Origin: a virus
IMG/VR virus record: IMGVR_UViG_3300044546_001351
Coordinates: 1 to 22,991 of that record
Strand: one strand, 5' to 3'
Length of the DNA: 22,991 bases
Shown here piece after piece: positions 3,616 to 15,494 of this stretch (the first letter of the stretch is position 1; each line of letters begins with the position of its first letter). The position numbers were made by a program, and so were the translations under genes. The notes beneath the pieces were generated by a model. The model made no database searches. It worked only from the letters and a program-made list of their open reading frames with translations, and was not told where the DNA came from.

Positions 3616-3630
3616 GTGACACATGGCAAA
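3607..3630 (+). repeat. 24-base direct repeat, copy 2, at the next fibre junction
   Basis: This copy is identical to 1731-1754 and sits in the same functional position: end of one fibre gene, ribosome site and first codons of the next. It is consistent with duplication of a fibre module or with recombination at conserved junctions. Confidence 0.9.
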
Positions 3631-4714
3631 TACAGCACAATTAGGCTCGTATGGTGATGTTAGTGGATCACCACTGGTTTTTAGGAATAAGTTAATAAAC
3701 GGAGCAATGTTAATCGACCAAAGGAATGCTGGAGCAAGCAAAACTCCGGTTGACGGTGAATATCTGTTAGATAGGTGGAAAGCTGGCGCAAGTGCTGCAT
3801 CAAAATTCAGCGTTCAGCAAGTGACTTCAACCGCTCCGGTTGGTTTTAGTCATGCTTTGCAAATAACATCATTATCTGCTTATTCAGTTACAACAAACGA
3901 TAATTTTGAAATTTTTCAACTCATTGAAGGTTTCAATACTTATGATTTGGCTTTTGGAACGGCAAACGCCAAAACAATCACGGTATCATTTTGGGTACGG
4001 TCTAGTTTAACTGGAACGTTTGGTGGAGCTATTCAAAATAGCGCATTTAATCGATCTTACCCTTTTACTTATACAATTAGTGCAACGAATACTTGGGAGT
4101 ATAAAACCGTAACGATCCCTGGCGATACCTCTGGGACTTGGATTGGTGCGACCAGCGGCGCAGGATTAGTTTTATGTCTTGGGATTGGAGCAGGTACTGG
4201 TAGAAGTGGTCCGGCTGGTGCTTGGGCAGGAGCGACCTATTATAACGCGACAGGAGCAACTAGTTTAGTAGGAACTAACGCCGCTACTTTATTATTTTCA
4301 GGCGTCCAGCTAGAAGCTGGAAGTGTAGCGACACCGTTTGAACAAAGGCCGCTTGGTACTGAGTTAGTTTTGTGTCAGAGGTATTACGAACGAGCGTGGC
4401 CCTTGGGTGTTGCTACAGGCGCGGGTACTCCATCTTATTATGTTAGCGGTATGGTTTTAGCATCTGCAACAAATTTAGCCAGAGGTCCAGCACCTTGGAA
4501 AATTGAAAAAAAAGGCTCTGTCACTACTAAAGTTTGGGCATTTTCAGGTGACGCAGATAAAATTTCTGTGATGGGTTCTGGTATGACTCTCGCAGGAACA
4601 GTTGTAAGTAAGGCGGTAGATAATAATACATTCTTTTTATTGTCTGATAGTGGAAGCGGTTTAGCTATAGGCACATGGTATTGTTATGCTTGGACTTGTG
4701 AATCAGAACTCTGA
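3623..4714 (+). CDS. Phage tail-fibre / adsorption protein with the 'RNKLINGAMLIDQR' fold
   Basis: The protein has 363 residues. Residues about 20-52 read FRNKLINGAMLIDQRN...YLLDRWK. Residues about 225-260 read SGVQLEAGS...FEQRPLGTEL...CQRYYE. These paired signatures bracket a carbohydrate-binding-like beta sandwich that recurs in phage tail proteins (family knowledge). The first residues, MAN, come from the shared 24-base junction repeat. The gene follows the two fibre genes directly and most likely encodes a third fibre or tip component. No peptidase or lyase motif is visible. The third gene lacks the IASGYVGEL/IRIA C-terminal module of the other two. Confidence 0.8.
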   Translation: MANTAQLGSYGDVSGSPLVFRNKLINGAMLIDQRNAGASKTPVDGEYLLDRWKAGASAASKFSVQQVTSTAPVGFSHALQITSLSAYSVTTNDNFEIFQLIEGFNTYDLAFGTANAKTITVSFWVRSSLTGTFGGAIQNSAFNRSYPFTYTISATNTWEYKTVTIPGDTSGTWIGATSGAGLVLCLGIGAGTGRSGPAGAWAGATYYNATGATSLVGTNAATLLFSGVQLEAGSVATPFEQRPLGTELVLCQRYYERAWPLGVATGAGTPSYYVSGMVLASATNLARGPAPWKIEKKGSVTTKVWAFSGDADKISVMGSGMTLAGTVVSKAVDNNTFFLLSDSGSGLAIGTWYCYAWTCESEL

Positions 4715-4723
4715 GAGGCACTT

Positions 4724-5170
4724 ATGAAAACGCTATTAGCTCTGTTTTTATTTTCCTCACAAGCTTTCGCACAGTGGGTTCCAGCGCCTCCTGCGGATCC
4801 AATTCCTACACCCTTTCCAGGTCCCTCGGCGCTATCTTGGGAAGTAAATGAGTTTCGCACTCAGTTTAACCTAGTCAATTTGACTTCTACTGCAGAGCTA
4901 GACTGTGCTGCGTATAGGCATGCTGCAGACCTATATGCCTCGCGTGTATGTAGGCACACGGGTTCAGATGGCTCCACATTCCCTGACAGAGCTAGGGACT
5001 GTAACACTGATGCTAAATCTCAGCTGATAGCCTGTGGTTTCCAGAGACCTGAAGCTGTAATCCGAAAGTGGGTAGCTGATACTCTAGGTCAGCAAATCTT
5101 GCTAGATCCTGACTATATAGCTTTAGGATCAGCGCATGTAGGTAACGTTTGGGTTTTACTTTTACAATAA
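4724..5170 (+). CDS. Secreted CAP (SCP/PR-1)-like domain protein, degenerate
   Basis: This 148-residue protein has a clear signal peptide: MKT, a hydrophobic core, and a likely signal peptidase I site after AFA (residue 16). A Pro-rich linker (about 19-36) follows, then a CAP-like domain. Cys61, 76, 93 and 104 align with four cysteines of the second CAP protein in this window (8094-8540), suggesting two disulfides in an exported protein. CRHTGSDGS (from residue 76) is a classic CAP motif. However, the Glu of the usual GEN motif is missing (KSQLIACGF), and the GHR-type His is missing (TLGQQILLDPDY). The full CAP cavity tetrad is therefore absent. A GAGG site precedes the ATG. The role is unknown; it could act at the host envelope. 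Confidence 0.75.
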   Translation: MKTLLALFLFSSQAFAQWVPAPPADPIPTPFPGPSALSWEVNEFRTQFNLVNLTSTAELDCAAYRHAADLYASRVCRHTGSDGSTFPDRARDCNTDAKSQLIACGFQRPEAVIRKWVADTLGQQILLDPDYIALGSAHVGNVWVLLLQ

Positions 5171-5181
5171 AGGATACACAT

Positions 5182-5625
5182 ATGCCTCTCAAGTCTGGAT
5201 ACTCTCAAAAAACTATTTCCAAAAACATTGGTACTGAAATGAAATCGGGCGCTCCACAGAAACAGGCTATAGCCATTGCTCTGTCTAAAGCCCGTGAAGC
5301 TAAGAAAAGAGCAGGCAAATGGATGGGCGGAAGAGTAGAAGGCGAAGAGGGTAGGGCAGCACCTGATAATCAGTCTTGGGATTTAAAACAGCCTATGCCT
5401 GAAAGAGTTGATAGCACAGGTGAACCTCATGCTGCAGAACGTAAAGCCGAGAATTTTAGTAACCTAGGTCCTGACAGCCCGGCAGGACTAAGCTATACTT
5501 ATCACACCTCACCAGACTACAAGTCGCCTGTCCTAGATCATCTAGGCGAAACGGATGTTACACCCAAGTACGATCCTGACGACGAAATGTCTATTGTCGC
5601 AGCGTTAAAAAAGAGGGTGAAATGA
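5182..5625 (+). CDS. Conserved small phage protein, basic N-terminus
   Basis: This 147-residue protein starts at the ATG at 5182, preceded by AAAGGA; an upstream in-frame codon at 5149 lacks a good site and would overlap the CAP gene. The N-terminus (KSGYSQKTISKNIGTEMKSG, then PQKQAIAIALSKAREA) matches a small phage protein family in which a short helical segment contains PQKQAxAIALSKA (family knowledge). The remainder is hydrophilic and probably disordered, with many Pro, Asp and Glu residues. It ends in a basic LKKRVK tail overlapping the next gene by 4 bases (ATGA). The function of the family is not known to me. Its position suggests a virion or late accessory protein. Confidence 0.65.
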   Translation: MPLKSGYSQKTISKNIGTEMKSGAPQKQAIAIALSKAREAKKRAGKWMGGRVEGEEGRAAPDNQSWDLKQPMPERVDSTGEPHAAERKAENFSNLGPDSPAGLSYTYHTSPDYKSPVLDHLGETDVTPKYDPDDEMSIVAALKKRVK

Positions 5626-5957
5626 GATTTATTCAATTTGAACCTTTTGCCAGTATTACAGCTGCTGCTGATGCCTACTCTGATCCGGTAGAAATAGCCT
5701 CGGTTTTTAGCATGGGCATGCATGCACACGTATTGACAGGCACGGCTAAAGGCAAGGCCTATTTCCAAGTCAGCTGTGATCCTATTGGTGGGACACCGGG
5801 TAATTTTGTTACCTATGGTTCTGGCGCGGACCTTACTGGTAGTGAAGTACAAGCCTACAGTTTCACCGAAATAGCTGCAAACTGGGTGCGTCTTTTTTGG
5901 GATCATAGTTCTGGAAGCGGAACGCTCAGAATTCACCTTAAAACCAACGGGTATTAA
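5622..5957 (+). CDS. Small beta-rich phage structural protein
   Basis: This 111-residue protein is translationally coupled to the previous gene through ATGA. The pattern is beta-rich: FEPFASITAAADAYSDPVEI, then HVLTGTAKGKAYFQVSCDP, then a WVRLFWDHSSGSGTLRIHL end. Small phage virion proteins encoded between tail and lysis genes often read this way, with a 'vtGta.G...lQ.S.D' core and a 'WVR...GSGTL' end (family knowledge). No enzyme motif is present. A tail or decoration role is inferred. It loosely resembles the partial protein at the left edge of the window in strand pattern, but I cannot prove homology by eye. Confidence 0.6.
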   Translation: MRFIQFEPFASITAAADAYSDPVEIASVFSMGMHAHVLTGTAKGKAYFQVSCDPIGGTPGNFVTYGSGADLTGSEVQAYSFTEIAANWVRLFWDHSSGSGTLRIHLKTNGY

Positions 5958-5959
5958 CT

Positions 5960-6133
5960 ATGTTTCAAAAATGGATTTTATCCGCTTTGAAAACTGTCTT
6001 AGCTGATGATGGCACAAAAAAATGCTTATTTTCAGCGTTAGATAAAGCTGTGAAAGACACTAAAAATCCGGTAGATGATAAAGCGGCGGAAGTCATTAAA
6101 GCTACCTATGACGTCATAGTAGGTATCTTATGA
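5960..6133 (+). CDS. 57-residue helical protein upstream of the endolysin
   Basis: This short gene reads MFQKWILSALKTVLADDG at its start and NPVDDKAAEVIKATYDVIV near its end. It begins two bases after the upstream stop and overlaps the endolysin start by ATGA, so it belongs to the same cassette. The sequence predicts two amphipathic helices around a short Lys/Asp-rich centre. I see no convincing transmembrane helix, so it is not an obvious holin. Short proteins with a 'TkNpvDDk' type core are common beside phage lysis genes (family knowledge, moderate). A lysis-accessory role is a guess from location. Confidence 0.6.
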   Translation: MFQKWILSALKTVLADDGTKKCLFSALDKAVKDTKNPVDDKAAEVIKATYDVIVGIL

Positions 6134-6585
6134 AAGAGCCAACCCGTTTCAGTAGTCCTAACCTATTGTTTCCGCCGTTTTTGGCGGAACTGGTGCTGGG
6201 CATAGCAAGGGCTAATGAAGCGGGTTTCCCTATTGCTATCTTTGAAAGTTTCCGATCGCCTATACGCCAAGGCCAGCTGTACGAGCAAGGTAGGTCTCAG
6301 TCTGGTAAGATAATTACTAATGCTCAGCCCTGGAAAAGCTGGCACCAATACGGCCTAGCAGCTGATATTGCGCTGTTTCAAAACGGTGGGTGGAGTTGGG
6401 ACTTTGATCCCAAGAAAATAGCTAAGTTTTTTGAAAGTCCTAAACTTACTTGGGGAGGGACTTTTAAAAGTTTTGATGGCCCACACTATGAGTGGAAGAA
6501 AAAGCCAAGCCTCGTAGTGTCCGAAGCTTTGGTTAAATCTCAAGGTATACTTAGATTTTGGGCGGAAATTGAAGCTTCGTCTTAA
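6130..6585 (+). CDS. Endolysin: M15-family D-Ala/L-Ala-D-Glu-type peptidase
   Basis: This 151-residue enzyme should cut peptide cross-links or stems of peptidoglycan to release progeny. Zinc-site residues are visible in order: SWHQYGLAADI gives His72 and Asp79, and FDGPHYEW gives His119 with Asp116 three residues before it as the likely catalytic acid. The N-terminal FESFRSPIRQGQLYEQGR segment is a typical substrate-side motif of the VanY/M15C branch. The length suits a single-domain endolysin with no added cell-wall-binding domain and no signal peptide, so release would normally need a holin. It overlaps the 57-residue gene by ATGA. Its stop at 6585 is one base from the end of a convergent minus-strand gene. 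Confidence 0.88.
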   Translation: MKEPTRFSSPNLLFPPFLAELVLGIARANEAGFPIAIFESFRSPIRQGQLYEQGRSQSGKIITNAQPWKSWHQYGLAADIALFQNGGWSWDFDPKKIAKFFESPKLTWGGTFKSFDGPHYEWKKKPSLVVSEALVKSQGILRFWAEIEASS

Positions 6586-6586
6586 T

Positions 6587-6808
6587 TTACTTGGGACCAC
6601 ACACATGCACGATAGCTTCGCGTTTCATCTTAGGTTTTCTTAGCCTCACTTTAATCTGAGACTTGTTAAAACCCTCTAATACCTTAGTCAGAATAGAATA
6701 ATCATCTAGGCTAAAGTGATAGGGCTCAGACCTCTCAAGTTTTACCATTGATTCAGCTGTAACTTTTAAGCCGTGGAGTATCATTAGTTCTTGTACTGTC
6801 AGCTGCAT
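6587..6808 (-). CDS. Unknown 73-residue protein, last gene of the RecT operon
   Basis: The start overlaps the RecT-like gene stop as TAATG, so translation is coupled. The sequence has a hydrophobic N-terminal helix-like part (MQLTVQELMILHGLKVTAES), a centre with HFSLDDYSILTKVLEG, and a basic C-terminal stretch (IKVRLRKPKMKREA). The basic end would suit nucleic-acid contact, but that is only inferred. I do not recognise a family. The gene ends one base from the convergent endolysin gene, with no terminator-like hairpin between them. Confidence 0.6.
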   Translation of the reverse strand: MQLTVQELMILHGLKVTAESMVKLERSEPYHFSLDDYSILTKVLEGFNKSQIKVRLRKPKMKREAIVHVCGPK

Positions 6809-7632
6809 TACTGGCCTCCAAACGTGCTGTAAACATCTGCTTCAAATTTCACCACATCAATTATTTCAGCAACGGTAGGTTTGTTCCACGTCCTGCCTTC
6901 AAGTAATGCCAGAGCTCGATCAATACCCGCAGCGTCTAGCTCTTTACCTAAAACACTTTTTGCTACTTCTACCATACGAGTATTTTTGTTACTGAATAAC
7001 GCCGGATTTTTTTTAACATCGGGCGTAGGTGTTGGGACAGAAGTAGGGCTCGGTGCTGGAGTAGGTGTGGGTGTCGGCGAGATATCTATTACGTCTCCGC
7101 TCTCATCTACTTCGGCACCTAGTTCTTCAGGTGTATAGCTAATACCAGCTATAGCATCGGGAAATAATGATCTAGCCATCTCAGACACTACCCTAGCGTG
7201 AAGCATAGCCCGGGGGTATTTAGACCACGTTGGATTGCCCGTAATACCTGCCTTTTTGGCATCCTCAAGGCTCCAAACGAAAGTCTCGACTCCGTGCCCA
7301 TCACGCTTCGCTTCGACAATACAGCGTTCACTAGAGCGCTCTTTAAACTTAATCACGGTCTTTGGGTGTAGCCGGTAGATTTGAGCAAGCATAAGCTCAG
7401 CACTCATACACGGCTTACCGTTGATTACATGGATATGACTCAGGGCTTGCAGAGGCGGGATTTGTAGCTCTTTACCCTTCAGTACAATAAGAATCACTTG
7501 CTCGGGCTTGGTAATCCCTTTTGGGAGTAAGCCTGATGCCAGTAGGGACTTGGACTGCTCTTTCAGTAAATCCCACTCGTGCAGGGTAGGCAGGTGATTA
7601 GAATAAGTCGAAAGCATCGTCTGGGATGTCAT
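6808..7632 (-). CDS. RecT-like single-strand annealing recombinase
   Basis: I set the start at 7632 because CAGGAG lies 9-10 bases upstream of that ATG. A longer frame to 7719 would overlap the preceding gene by more than 120 bases. The 274-residue product carries the phage RecT-type core: LKGKELQIPPLQALSHIHVI, GKPCMSAELMLAQI, the DAKKAGITGNPTWSKYPRAM segment and MARSLFPDAIAGISYTPEEL. Such proteins coat single strands and anneal homologous DNA during phage replication (family knowledge). A Pro/Thr/Ser linker (SPTPTPTPAPSP...) joins the core to a C-terminal helical part. It overlaps the 123-residue upstream gene by 35 bases. No partner exonuclease gene is beside it. Confidence 0.75.
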   Translation of the reverse strand: MTSQTMLSTYSNHLPTLHEWDLLKEQSKSLLASGLLPKGITKPEQVILIVLKGKELQIPPLQALSHIHVINGKPCMSAELMLAQIYRLHPKTVIKFKERSSERCIVEAKRDGHGVETFVWSLEDAKKAGITGNPTWSKYPRAMLHARVVSEMARSLFPDAIAGISYTPEELGAEVDESGDVIDISPTPTPTPAPSPTSVPTPTPDVKKNPALFSNKNTRMVEVAKSVLGKELDAAGIDRALALLEGRTWNKPTVAEIIDVVKFEADVYSTFGGQ

Positions 7633-7969
7633 ATGCAGTTGTCTCCTGTTTTTTCGCAGTCTTGAGATATTCGTCTTTAATCCGGTTAAAGATAGTGCGC
7701 TGTTTTTCGGTAAATTCATGCCGTTTTGCTACATCATTGATAAATTTTGCTTCCCACTCTGGAAGCTTGCCAGCTTGTAACAGATGTAGGCTTGCACGGT
7801 CATCTTCTGAAACCGGGCTTGTCTCTTTTGCTACTGGCTCGTGATAACCCAACCACTTTAGGCAGTCCTGGCATACCTTTTTCCCAGCAGCCTGAGTAAA
7901 AGGACCTGGAAGAATAAACTCCCTGTGTTTCCCGTCCTTTGTATAAGACCACTTACATTCGTCGGTCAT
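7598..7969 (-). CDS. Unknown 123-residue protein with SSB-like acidic C-terminal tip
   Basis: This is the first gene of the minus-strand recombination operon, with a GAGG site ahead of the ATG and a promoter at 8006-8033. The N-terminal part has Cys5 and a CQDC pair (Cys33, Cys36), with His15 in between, perhaps a small metal site. The middle reads LPEWEAKFINDVAKRHEFTEKQ, a helical segment of a type common in phage recombination/replication accessory proteins. The last residues, DIPDDAFDLF, are acidic with hydrophobic ends, like the tail of single-stranded DNA-binding proteins that recruits partners. A role with the RecT-like protein is inferred. The family is not firmly recognised. Confidence 0.7.
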   Translation of the reverse strand: MTDECKWSYTKDGKHREFILPGPFTQAAGKKVCQDCLKWLGYHEPVAKETSPVSEDDRASLHLLQAGKLPEWEAKFINDVAKRHEFTEKQRTIFNRIKDEYLKTAKKQETTAYDIPDDAFDLF

Positions 7970-8005
7970 AAAACATCCTCGTTATGTTACCTAAATGGGA
8001 TGAGT

Positions 8006-8033
8006 TATATACCATAATAATTAATTAATTCAA
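8006..8033 (-). promoter_or_regulatory. Sigma70-type promoter for the RecT operon
   Basis: Read on the minus strand there is TTGAAT (8033-8028), a 16-base spacer, then TATATA (8011-8006) preceded by TGG, an extended -10. Transcription would start near 7999 and lead into the ATG at 7969. The very AT-rich spacer supports melting. Confidence 0.6.
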
Positions 8034-8093
8034 AATAAATAAACCTAAAACCAGGGGGGCGTGGTACCATAAATAAAACGTGGCGAGGTTTAT

Positions 8094-8540
8094 ATGAGGT
8101 GGCTGTGGCTCATAGCTATGTGCTTGTTTTGTTTGGGATTTAAGAATGAATCCCAGGAGTATATGCTTGCGCGTATTAATGCTGTTAGAGCGACCTACAG
8201 ACTTCCAGCCGTAGGCCTGCGTAAAGACCTTGAGTGTGCTAGTAGGTCATGGTCAAAAGACCTTTGGAGGACTAAGACCTGTAGGCATTTCGATCCTGCC
8301 AAAAGGGAGTATTTTTGGGACCGTGTAAGGATATGCGGTGGTTCTATTATACAGGGCGGTGAGATCGTCGCTTGTGGGTATCCGGATATTGATGCTGCGA
8401 TTGTAGGCTGGCTGAATAGCCCACAACACCGAAACATCTTCCTGTCGCGCTATACTAAAATCATAGGGGTTGGGTGGGCAGGAGAAGAAAACGGCGCCCA
8501 CTGGTATACTATGATAGCTGACATGTCGCCTGGAGTGTAA
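8094..8540 (+). CDS. Exported CAP (SCP/PR-1) domain protein with more complete site
   Basis: This 148-residue protein has an N-terminal hydrophobic segment (RWLWLIAMCLFCLGF) acting as signal or membrane anchor. The CAP domain follows. CRHF carries His65, GGEIVACGY carries Glu90 (GEN-type motif) and SPQHRNIF carries His112, so the classic cavity residues are mostly present, unlike the copy at 4724. Cys48, 63, 81 and 94 match the four cysteines of that copy. Spacing within LxC...CRH...DRxRxC...ACG(F/Y) is alike in both, so they are homologues. Arginine codons here are mainly AGG/AGA (8 of 13). The gene follows a GAGG site in the divergent region. Function in a phage is unknown; envelope or host-interaction work is inferred. 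Confidence 0.8.
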   Translation: MRWLWLIAMCLFCLGFKNESQEYMLARINAVRATYRLPAVGLRKDLECASRSWSKDLWRTKTCRHFDPAKREYFWDRVRICGGSIIQGGEIVACGYPDIDAAIVGWLNSPQHRNIFLSRYTKIIGVGWAGEENGAHWYTMIADMSPGV

Positions 8541-8831
8541 ATGTACCCTAAAGTCTACAAGGTTACGTTGCTACTACCTTGGCAACCCCCGCAAGTTGTA
8601 CTTGTGAGGGAGCTACTCGCCGGCGTCTACAGACTGCAGTTATTAGACAGGTATGACCGGAAGATAAACTATGCCGGAAGCGACATAGGTTTCGGCGTGA
8701 AACTTTTTAAAAGTACACAGAACCAAAGCTATATTGTCGTAAAGAATCACTGGGACGAGGTCCTATACGCTTCCGCCGACGGCAGGCCGCAAATCGTTGA
8801 GGTACTAGACATAGAGTCCGACGATTGCTAG
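8541..8831 (+). CDS. Unknown 96-residue protein
   Basis: The ATG comes directly after the CAP gene stop, so the two are co-translated or coupled. The sequence alternates hydrophobic and polar residues (YKVTLLLPWQPPQVVLVRELLAG, then YRLQLLDRYDRKI, then YIVVKNHWDEVLYA), which predicts a small beta-rich fold. It ends acidic (VEVLDIESDDC). No signal peptide or known motif is visible. A stem-loop follows the stop. The conserved neighbourhood of CAP protein plus this gene would be the best clue to function. Confidence 0.6.
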   Translation: MYPKVYKVTLLLPWQPPQVVLVRELLAGVYRLQLLDRYDRKINYAGSDIGFGVKLFKSTQNQSYIVVKNHWDEVLYASADGRPQIVEVLDIESDDC

Positions 8832-14618: not shown

Positions 14619-14985
14619 ACGGATTTATACGCCTGAAGAGATTGCGATGATTAAGAGGTACGCAGGACTCGGTGCCACACTCAATCAAATCTCGTATCTT
14701 GTCGACGAAGAAACACGCACTCTAACAAACCAAATGGAATACAACCCGGAAGTCCGTGAAGCCATCGAGAACGGCAGGGCAAAAGCGGCTATTCGTGTCA
14801 TGGAAACAGCGTATGACATGGCAACAAATGGCGACTATCCAGCCATGACCACGTTCTGGCTCAAGACGCGCTGTAACTGGCGCGAAGCCAAAGAGCCACT
14901 GCCCGATGATGCTGACAAAGTCGACAAGATTAAAAAACTGCCTACATCCGAGCTTATCAAGCTAGTAAAAGAGAAAATTGGATGA
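14605..14985 (+). CDS. Terminase small subunit-like (TerS)
   Basis: The start is GTG 14605 with GAGG seven bases upstream; earlier in-frame TTG 14587 lacks a site. The 126-residue product has an N-terminal helix-turn-helix-like part: YTPEEIAMIKRYAGLGATLN, then QISYLVDEETRTLTNQ. A helical middle (VREAIENGRAKAAIRVMETAYDMATNGDYPAMTTFWLKTR) and NWRE follow, the pattern of phage small terminases or their homologues (family knowledge). It would recognise the packaging site and load the large subunit. It lies directly upstream of the GNAT gene (ATGA overlap) and three genes ahead of TerL. Confidence 0.7.
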   Translation: MSKPRRIYTPEEIAMIKRYAGLGATLNQISYLVDEETRTLTNQMEYNPEVREAIENGRAKAAIRVMETAYDMATNGDYPAMTTFWLKTRCNWREAKEPLPDDADKVDKIKKLPTSELIKLVKEKIG

Positions 14986-15494
14986 TTGACGAAATCATCA
15001 TCCGGGAAGCAACGGACGACGATATGCCGTTCTTTTTTAACTCATTACTGCATCACTATAAGCACTCGTCACCGCACACGAAGCTTATGGCTGACTATGA
15101 TTATTACAATGATCTGCACAACATCATCAGTCGTGCGCTAGAACGCAAGGGAAATAGGCTAAGTTTTGTAGCTCTCAAAGAAGAGCCCGATGTGGTGCTT
15201 GGGTATGTTTGGGCAAATGATTGTATTCAAACGATCATGTACGTGTATGTGAAGAAAGCCTTTAGGCTGATGGGCATCGGCAAGCATCTTGTTTCCTCGG
15301 TATTTCCCAGCATGGACCACAAGATCTATTACCCTTTCCTGACCTATGACGCTGGCAAGCTATCGCAAAAATACCCGAATCTATTTTTTAATCCGTATTT
15401 ATTGGATGCACACATATGGAAGACCTACCAGAACCGCTTCGAAGAAAACCAGGACGACCTAGAAAGTATCCCATCTCATGCGAGGGTAATGTGA
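14982..15494 (+). CDS. GNAT-family N-acetyltransferase-like protein
   Basis: In this 170-residue protein the N-terminus IIIREATDDDMPFFFNSLL is a typical GNAT beginning. YVWANDCIQTIMYVYVKKAF, then RLMGIGKHL (95-103), is the acetyl-CoA loop (R-x-x-G-x-G). It would transfer an acetyl group to an unknown target, perhaps a host or virion protein. Such genes occur between terS and terL in several podovirus-like phages (family knowledge). A GTGA overlap links it to the next gene, although a longer alternative start there would overlap by 79 bases. The C-terminal 25 residues are Glu/Asp/Arg-rich. Confidence 0.7.
   Translation: MIDEIIIREATDDDMPFFFNSLLHHYKHSSPHTKLMADYDYYNDLHNIISRALERKGNRLSFVALKEEPDVVLGYVWANDCIQTIMYVYVKKAFRLMGIGKHLVSSVFPSMDHKIYYPFLTYDAGKLSQKYPNLFFNPYLLDAHIWKTYQNRFEENQDDLESIPSHARVM

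What the first reader, a model, noticed from the sequence alone, without database searches (positions are those of the whole stretch)
4724..8540. Two divergent CAP-domain proteins in one phage
The genes at 4724-5170 and 8094-8540 are both 148 residues and exported or anchored. They share four aligned cysteines and the CRH, DRxRxC and ACG(F/Y) pattern. The second keeps His65, Glu90 (GGEIVACGY) and His112 (SPQHRNIF); the first lacks the Glu and second His. CAP proteins are rare in phages, and a pair with one degenerate copy suggests specialised roles, for example envelope action, superinfection control or virion attachment. Seen: signals, cysteines, motifs. Inferred: function and homology by eye.
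Basis: partly seen in the sequence, partly recalled or inferred. Interest (0 to 1): 0.65.

Follow-up and report, generated by a model that had tools for sequence, protein, structure and literature searches.

The report
Paired CAP-domain envelope proteins in phages
This uncultured phage carries two exported proteins of the CAP fold, one with the usual histidine/glutamate site and one that has lost it; similar pairs recur in other uncultured phages, often beside tail-fibre genes, so they probably act on the host cell envelope rather than in the virion, but what they do there is untested.

Summary
P0002 (8094-8540) passes the Pfam CAP cut-off (44.4 vs 21.1 bits). P0001 (4724-5170) misses it narrowly (20.3), but a 53%-identical ortholog in another phage passes (27.9), and its confident AlphaFold model aligns to solved CAP/SCP domains (Z 19). 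The four cysteines align; P0002 keeps His65, Glu90 and His112; P0001 keeps only the first His. Both start with an export signal or anchor, so virion assembly is unlikely. About 18 independent uncultured phage contigs carry this four-cysteine CAP clade; none of 22 Pseudomonadota homologs aligned has the cysteines. All six contigs with a degenerate copy also carry an intact CAP (a biased sample). P0001's ortholog is the only gene its phage shares with this window in the stretch compared, and both lie directly downstream of a tail-fibre gene; a third degenerate copy does too. P0002 heads an operon divergent from a RecT operon; sister phages keep a CAP pair at that site. Best guess: envelope-acting accessory proteins, most likely interfering with re-adsorption (as T5 Llp does) or binding peptidoglycan (as DalA does). 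Function is untested. Phage CAP proteins were already known; this is a new variant.

The parts
4724..5170 (+). P0001, degenerate CAP protein (148 aa); keeps 4 Cys and the first His; Glu->Gln, second His->Gly
4724..4771 (+). Predicted cleavable signal peptide of P0001 (MKTLLALFLFSSQAFA/QW)
   Evidence: read from sequence; hydropathy scan; same kind of N-terminus in the G481 ortholog
4829..5167 (+). CAP domain of P0001
   Evidence: AF2 model residues 36-147 ordered; VIA-align Z 19.0 to the SCP domain of 4ifa, model residues 34-148
4713..4718 (+). Likely ribosome-binding site GAGAGG of P0001, overlapping the end of the tail-fibre gene
   Evidence: read from sequence
3623..4714 (+). Tail fibre protein directly upstream of P0001
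   Evidence: phrog_4492 tail fiber, E 5e-51
8094..8540 (+). P0002, intact CAP protein (148 aa) with 4 Cys and His65/Glu90/His112
8094..8144 (+). Hydrophobic N-terminal signal/anchor of P0002 (MRWLWLIAMCLFCLGFK), like that of the degenerate upstream copy b in sister phages
8154..8528 (+). CAP domain of P0002
   Evidence: Pfam CAP residues 25-138; AF2/Foldseek
8062..8070 (+). Candidate extended -10 element TGGTACCAT upstream of P0002; sister phages have TGNTATACT at the matching place
   Evidence: read; not found by the consensus scan, so weak
8085..8088 (+). Likely ribosome-binding site GAGG of P0002
   Evidence: read from sequence
6808..7719 (-). RecT-like annealing protein of the operon divergent from P0002
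   Evidence: phrog_561, E 2e-33
6130..6585 (+). Peptidase M15 (VanY-like) endolysin, same strand as and downstream of P0001
   Evidence: Pfam Peptidase_M15_4 E 6e-10; endolysin PHROGs
8541..8831 (+). Conserved small protein directly downstream of P0002; 67-70% identical in sister phages

Best explanation
P0001 and P0002 are two members of a phage-borne, four-cysteine clade of exported CAP proteins that act in the host envelope as binding proteins, not as virion parts. Shown: CAP fold in both, four conserved cysteines, export-type N-termini, intact site in P0002, lost site in P0001. Inferred from gene order: P0002 heads an operon with replication genes that is divergent from the RecT operon, so it is probably made early; P0001 lies between the last tail-fibre gene and the endolysin, so it is probably made late. 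Inferred, less certain: these are accessory genes that alter the envelope of the infected cell, most likely reducing re-adsorption of phage (receptor or surface masking, as T5 Llp does with an unrelated fold), with peptidoglycan/outer-membrane binding (as the CAP relative DalA does) as the anchoring activity. The site-less copies would be pure binders.
For: CAP fold and homology. Four Cys in all 24 phage rows tabulated and in none of 22 Pseudomonadota homologs; phage and bacterial rows separated by a supported branch (100/98, 97/98). Degenerate copies are under constraint: third-position excess 63/34/98 for P0001 vs G481 and 33/20/70 for G012_b vs G027_b. Degenerate copies lie directly 3' of a fibre gene in three otherwise unrelated contigs (window, G481, G052); P0001 is the only gene of this window that matches the 14.6 kb of G481 compared, so the gene moves and lands in the same kind of site. 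Other CAPs lie next to an M15 endolysin (G053, G477) or a transglycosylase-like gene (G475). Most other members carry a lipobox. Precedents: Llp is a small disulphide-bonded lipoprotein encoded adjacent to and downstream of the receptor-binding protein and blocks the receptor from the periplasm (PMC9586334; PMC4728585); DalA, the best NCBIfam hit of both proteins, is an outer-membrane lipoprotein that binds peptidoglycan non-covalently (PMC10470522).
Against: No functional data. Neither window protein has a lipobox, unlike Llp and DalA. In two sister phages the intact copy (G012_a, G027_a) has no visible signal peptide, which does not fit simple envelope action for that copy. Several members lie away from fibre genes (for example G480). 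The fibre adjacency was noticed after the fact and not tested against a null. Host and receptor are unknown. Early and late timing is inferred from gene order only.
Confidence: 0.4

Rival explanations
1. DalA-like division/peptidoglycan modulators: the proteins bind peptidoglycan and divert the host's wall-remodelling machinery during infection, with no role in phage adsorption.
For: DalA is the best NCBIfam hit for both (40.6 and 45.3 bits). All 17 DalA-type sequences aligned have Thr in place of the second His, and two phage degenerate copies (G052_3, G053_2) also have Thr there, after Asp. DalA binds peptidoglycan and its loss disturbs division (PMC10470522).
Against: Both are far below the DalA equivalog cut-off of 200 bits; DalA lacks the four cysteines and groups with other bacterial CAPs in the tree; P0001 has Gly, not Thr, at the second-His site.
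Confidence: 0.25
2. Lysis accessories: the CAP proteins help the endolysin or the outer-membrane disruption step at the end of infection, perhaps standing in for a spanin.
For: P0001 shares the strand and region of the M15 endolysin; G053 and G477 CAPs are next to M15 endolysins, G475 next to a transglycosylase-like gene. No convincing spanin was found among the window proteins scanned.
Against: P0002 and its sister-phage counterparts sit in the replication-side operon, not the lysis region; the fold is not that of a known spanin or hydrolase; not all proteins of the window were scanned, and the genome is incomplete.
Confidence: 0.2
3. Neutral or host-derived morons: CAP genes are picked up from hosts and carried without a specific role in the phage cycle.
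For: Patchy distribution: 4 of 86 related contigs searched carry one, besides the window; horizontal transfer of P0001 alone.
Against: Purifying selection even on degenerate copies; a distinct four-Cys clade without a close match in 398 Pseudomonadota genomes; recurrence of intact plus degenerate combinations and of one kind of genomic site.
Confidence: 0.1

Closest known systems
CAP/SCP superfamily (Pfam PF00188); nearest solved folds 4ifa (SCP-domain protein of Bacillus anthracis) and 4d53 (Borrelia BB0689)
   Same: Alpha-beta-alpha CAP fold, His/Glu/His site in P0002, exported protein
   Different: About 20% identity; a four-cysteine pattern that none of the bacterial homologs aligned here has; P0001 lacks the Glu and second His
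DalA (NCBIfam NF052539), Rhodobacterales outer-membrane lipoprotein
   Same: Best NCBIfam hit of both; CAP-type domain; DalA also lacks the second His, as P0001 does
   Different: No cysteines in the domain, lipobox present, window proteins score 40-45 against a cut-off of 200 bits, separate in the tree
LysM-CAP (YkwD-like) protein of Bacillus megaterium phages Stills and Slash
   Same: Phage-encoded secreted CAP protein of unknown role (PMC4541274; tblastn hit to Slash)
   Different: Gram-positive host, LysM fusion, 30% identity, no pair reported
T5 Llp / Cor superinfection-exclusion lipoproteins
   Same: Small, exported, cysteine-bearing protein encoded beside the receptor-binding or tail-fibre gene
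   Different: Unrelated sequence, much smaller, lipidated; no receptor shown here

Membership tests
CAP superfamily (PF00188) | Profile score over the curated cut-off, P0002 | tested here: met
   44.4 bits against 21.1
CAP superfamily (PF00188) | Profile score over the curated cut-off, P0001 | tested here: inconclusive
   20.3 bits, 0.8 below the cut-off; its 53% ortholog scores 27.9, above it
CAP superfamily (PF00188) | CAP alpha-beta-alpha fold, both proteins | tested here: met
   AF2 models with pLDDT 92.8 and 88.3; Foldseek top hits are CAP/SCP domains; P0001 VIA Z 19.0, rmsd 1.4 over 115 residues to 4ifa
CAP superfamily (PF00188) | Conserved His/Glu/His site residues, P0002 | tested here: met
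   H65, E90, H112 aligned and invariant in the P0002 sub-clade
CAP superfamily (PF00188) | Conserved His/Glu/His site residues, P0001 | tested here: not met
   First His kept; Gln and Gly at the other two. The site varies in true CAP proteins: human CRISP1 lacks one His (PMC7943821 abstract), so I place P0001 in the CAP fold but not among site-bearing CAPs
DalA (NF052539) | Equivalog cut-off 200 bits | tested here: not met
   40.6 and 45.3 bits; DalA sequences of the Rhodobacteraceae genomes searched score 208-276
DalA (NF052539) | Lipobox and outer-membrane anchoring | tested here: not met
   No lipobox in P0001 or P0002 by pattern
DalA (NF052539) | Peptidoglycan binding | not testable with these tools
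   Needs purified protein
YkwD family (TIGR02909) | Curated cut-off 171 bits | tested here: not met
   P0002 41.5 bits
Llp/Cor superinfection-exclusion lipoproteins | Lipoprotein signal | tested here: not met
   No lipobox in either window protein; present in most other phage members
Llp/Cor superinfection-exclusion lipoproteins | Gene beside the receptor-binding or tail-fibre gene | tested here: met
   P0001 starts 9 bp after a tail-fibre gene; same arrangement for G481 and G052_3. P0002 does not share it
Llp/Cor superinfection-exclusion lipoproteins | Blocks a phage receptor | not testable with these tools
   Host and receptor unknown

The most novel reading that the evidence does not exclude
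A family of phage-specific four-cysteine CAP proteins used as a two-part envelope system: an intact copy, and a site-less copy that moves between unrelated phages into the place beside tail-fibre genes and blocks re-adsorption through a CAP fold, a superinfection-exclusion mechanism not yet described for this fold.
Probability: 0.2. Interest if true: 0.75.

Novelty: new variant of a known kind. Interest (0 to 1): 0.45.

Why it matters
CAP proteins occur in all kingdoms but their molecular role in bacteria is mostly unknown. Phages that keep intact and site-less copies under selection offer a small system in which the His/Glu/His site can be separated from the fold, and the tail-fibre adjacency gives a direct, testable guess (adsorption control). 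It would also add a fold to the short list of phage proteins that change the envelope of the infected cell.

Tried and rejected
Programmed frameshift joining copy b to copy a in sister phages: rejected, because in G027 a TGA stop lies in the a frame between the G run and the ATG; a plain start with an upstream GGGGGA fits better. Virion attachment: unlikely given the export signals. Simple within-phage duplication giving P0001 and P0002: not supported by the tree or the G481 ortholog. Single origin of all degenerate copies: the best tree needs three changes, but one clade is not rejected (p-AU 0.245), so neither is settled. Single-protein scans of IMG/VR with P0001 and P0002 found nothing; alignment scans were needed. 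The host was not settled: a capsid-protein scan of 84,980 genomes gave one hit, at 43%, in a Rhodobacteraceae MAG contig that may be a mis-binned phage. Alignment A8 was too divergent to scan with. Promoter consensus scan: no hit at P0002 and no more promoter-like sites than in shuffled sequence. Literature searches found no report of phage CAP function.

Full report
WHAT WAS CHECKED. The window is the whole of an IMG/VR record of 22,991 bases, a tailed-phage fragment with terminase, portal and major capsid genes. Both ORFs are as described. They are homologous to each other (25% over 105 aa, E 1e-10) and both are CAP proteins: P0002 clearly by Pfam, P0001 at 20.3 bits against a cut-off of 21.1. 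The doubt about P0001 is removed by an ortholog in contig G481, 53% identical over 149 residues, that scores 27.9 bits, and by structure: AF2 models with pLDDT 92.8 and 88.3, Foldseek top hits 4ifa and 4d53 for both, and VIA-align Z 19.0 with rmsd 1.4 for P0001 against 4ifa. The two models were predicted from alignments of the same 11 sequences, so they are not fully independent of each other.

THE SITE. P0002 has H65, E90 and H112. P0001 has the first His but Gln and Gly at the other two places. The four cysteines (48, 63, 81, 94 in P0002) are present in all 24 four-Cys phage rows tabulated, intact or degenerate, and in none of the 22 Pseudomonadota homologs, 17 of which are of DalA type. Disulphide pairing was not tested.

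THE FAMILY IN PHAGES. Relatives of the window's phage were collected through terminase and capsid proteins. Among 86 of these contigs, CAP genes were found in four: G010, G012, G021, G027. Many contigs are fragments, so absence is weak evidence. Alignment scans of IMG/VR added contigs from other phage groups, giving about 18 independent CAP-bearing contigs. Degenerate copies occur in six (window, G012, G027, G052, G053, G481), and each of these also has an intact CAP; in G481 the intact one is of a different CAP type, judged by reading its sequence. G052 and G053 were found through their intact copies, so this 6-of-6 count is biased. G010, G472 and G482 carry a second CAP of another type (Pfam CAP 40-53 bits). 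In all, 9 of about 18 contigs carry two or more CAP genes.

ORIGIN. In the trees the phage clade is separated from the sampled bacterial CAPs (100/98; 97/98), but only Pseudomonadota were sampled, so a donor elsewhere is not excluded. P0002 belongs with the intact copies of G012 and G027 (47-52% identity; support 100/100). In those sister phages a degenerate copy b lies just upstream and overlaps a; b carries the hydrophobic N-terminus and a has none. P0002 combines a b-like N-terminus (LFCLGFK shared with G027_b) with the a domain, which suggests either a fusion by deletion or an ancestral single gene; the direction is unknown. P0001 is closest to its G481 ortholog. Blastp of the 14.6 kb of G481 held against the window found no other shared gene, so the CAP gene has most likely moved horizontally. 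Degeneration needs at least three changes on the best tree, though one origin is not rejected.

GENE ORDER. P0001 starts 9 bp after a tail-fibre gene (phrog_4492), and the M15 endolysin follows downstream on the same strand. In G481 the ortholog directly follows a 1,127-aa protein with tail-fibre similarity, and in G052 the degenerate copy directly follows a 939-aa fibre-like protein. In G472 the CAP gene follows tail proteins; G053 and G477 CAPs are next to M15 endolysins. The adjacency was noticed after the fact and not tested against a null. P0002 is the first gene of a rightward operon with replication genes, divergent from the RecT operon; the b-a pair of G012 and G027 holds the same place. 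A candidate extended -10 element is conserved there by eye but was not found by the consensus scan.

SELECTION. Differences concentrate at third codon positions between P0001 and G481 (63/34/98 at positions 1/2/3) and between the two b copies (33/20/70), so degenerate copies are maintained proteins, not decaying ones. dS was saturated in these two comparisons.

MECHANISM. Both proteins begin with an export signal or anchor (read from sequence; hydropathy), which places them in the envelope and argues against assembly into virions. Two precedents fit. Llp of T5 is a small disulphide-bonded lipoprotein encoded just downstream of the receptor-binding protein; it blocks the receptor FhuA from the periplasm (PMC9586334; PMC4728585). 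DalA, the best NCBIfam hit, is an outer-membrane lipoprotein that binds peptidoglycan non-covalently and, in the 17 sequences aligned here, has Thr for the second His. I favour envelope binding with control of re-adsorption, clearest for the fibre-linked P0001 type, at about 0.4, with peptidoglycan/division modulation and lysis assistance as rivals. None of these roles is shown.

NOVELTY. Phage CAP proteins are known (Stills and Slash, role unknown; SCP-domain proteins in uncultured Caudovirales). New here, as far as these tools show, are the four-cysteine phage clade, the recurrent intact plus degenerate combination, and the horizontally moved fibre-adjacent copy. That makes it a new variant of a known kind.

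Noticed in passing
L113 8104-9065 and L115 11533-12377 (sister phages): The intact CAP copy a lacks a signal peptide and its start codon lies inside the degenerate copy b, which has one; how a would reach the envelope is unexplained.
   Followed up: partly
L112 7796-8380 and L162 6737-7333: A second, different CAP type with a lipobox lies beside the four-Cys CAP in G010 and G472; G482 (L175 9501-9965) has a comparable extra CAP.
   Followed up: partly
L131, L135-L155 (Rhodobacteraceae and other Pseudomonadota): All 17 DalA-type sequences aligned keep the first His and the Glu but have Thr in place of the second His; the terms 'CAP superfamily' and 'SCP' do not occur in the main text of the DalA paper (PMC10470522).
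   Followed up: partly
window 14982-15494: A conserved protein that looks like an acetyltransferase lies in the gene cluster upstream of the large terminase, about 60% identical in sister phages; its family was judged by eye only.
   Followed up: no
L112 11120-11896 and L114 7709-8482: An exported protein that looks like an esterase lies near the CAP genes of G010 and G021.
   Followed up: no
L116 (Rhodobacteraceae MAG contig PIVL01000026.1): A contig of 24.6 kb in a named MAG encodes a capsid protein 43% identical to the window's; possibly a phage of that host, possibly mis-binned.
   Followed up: partly
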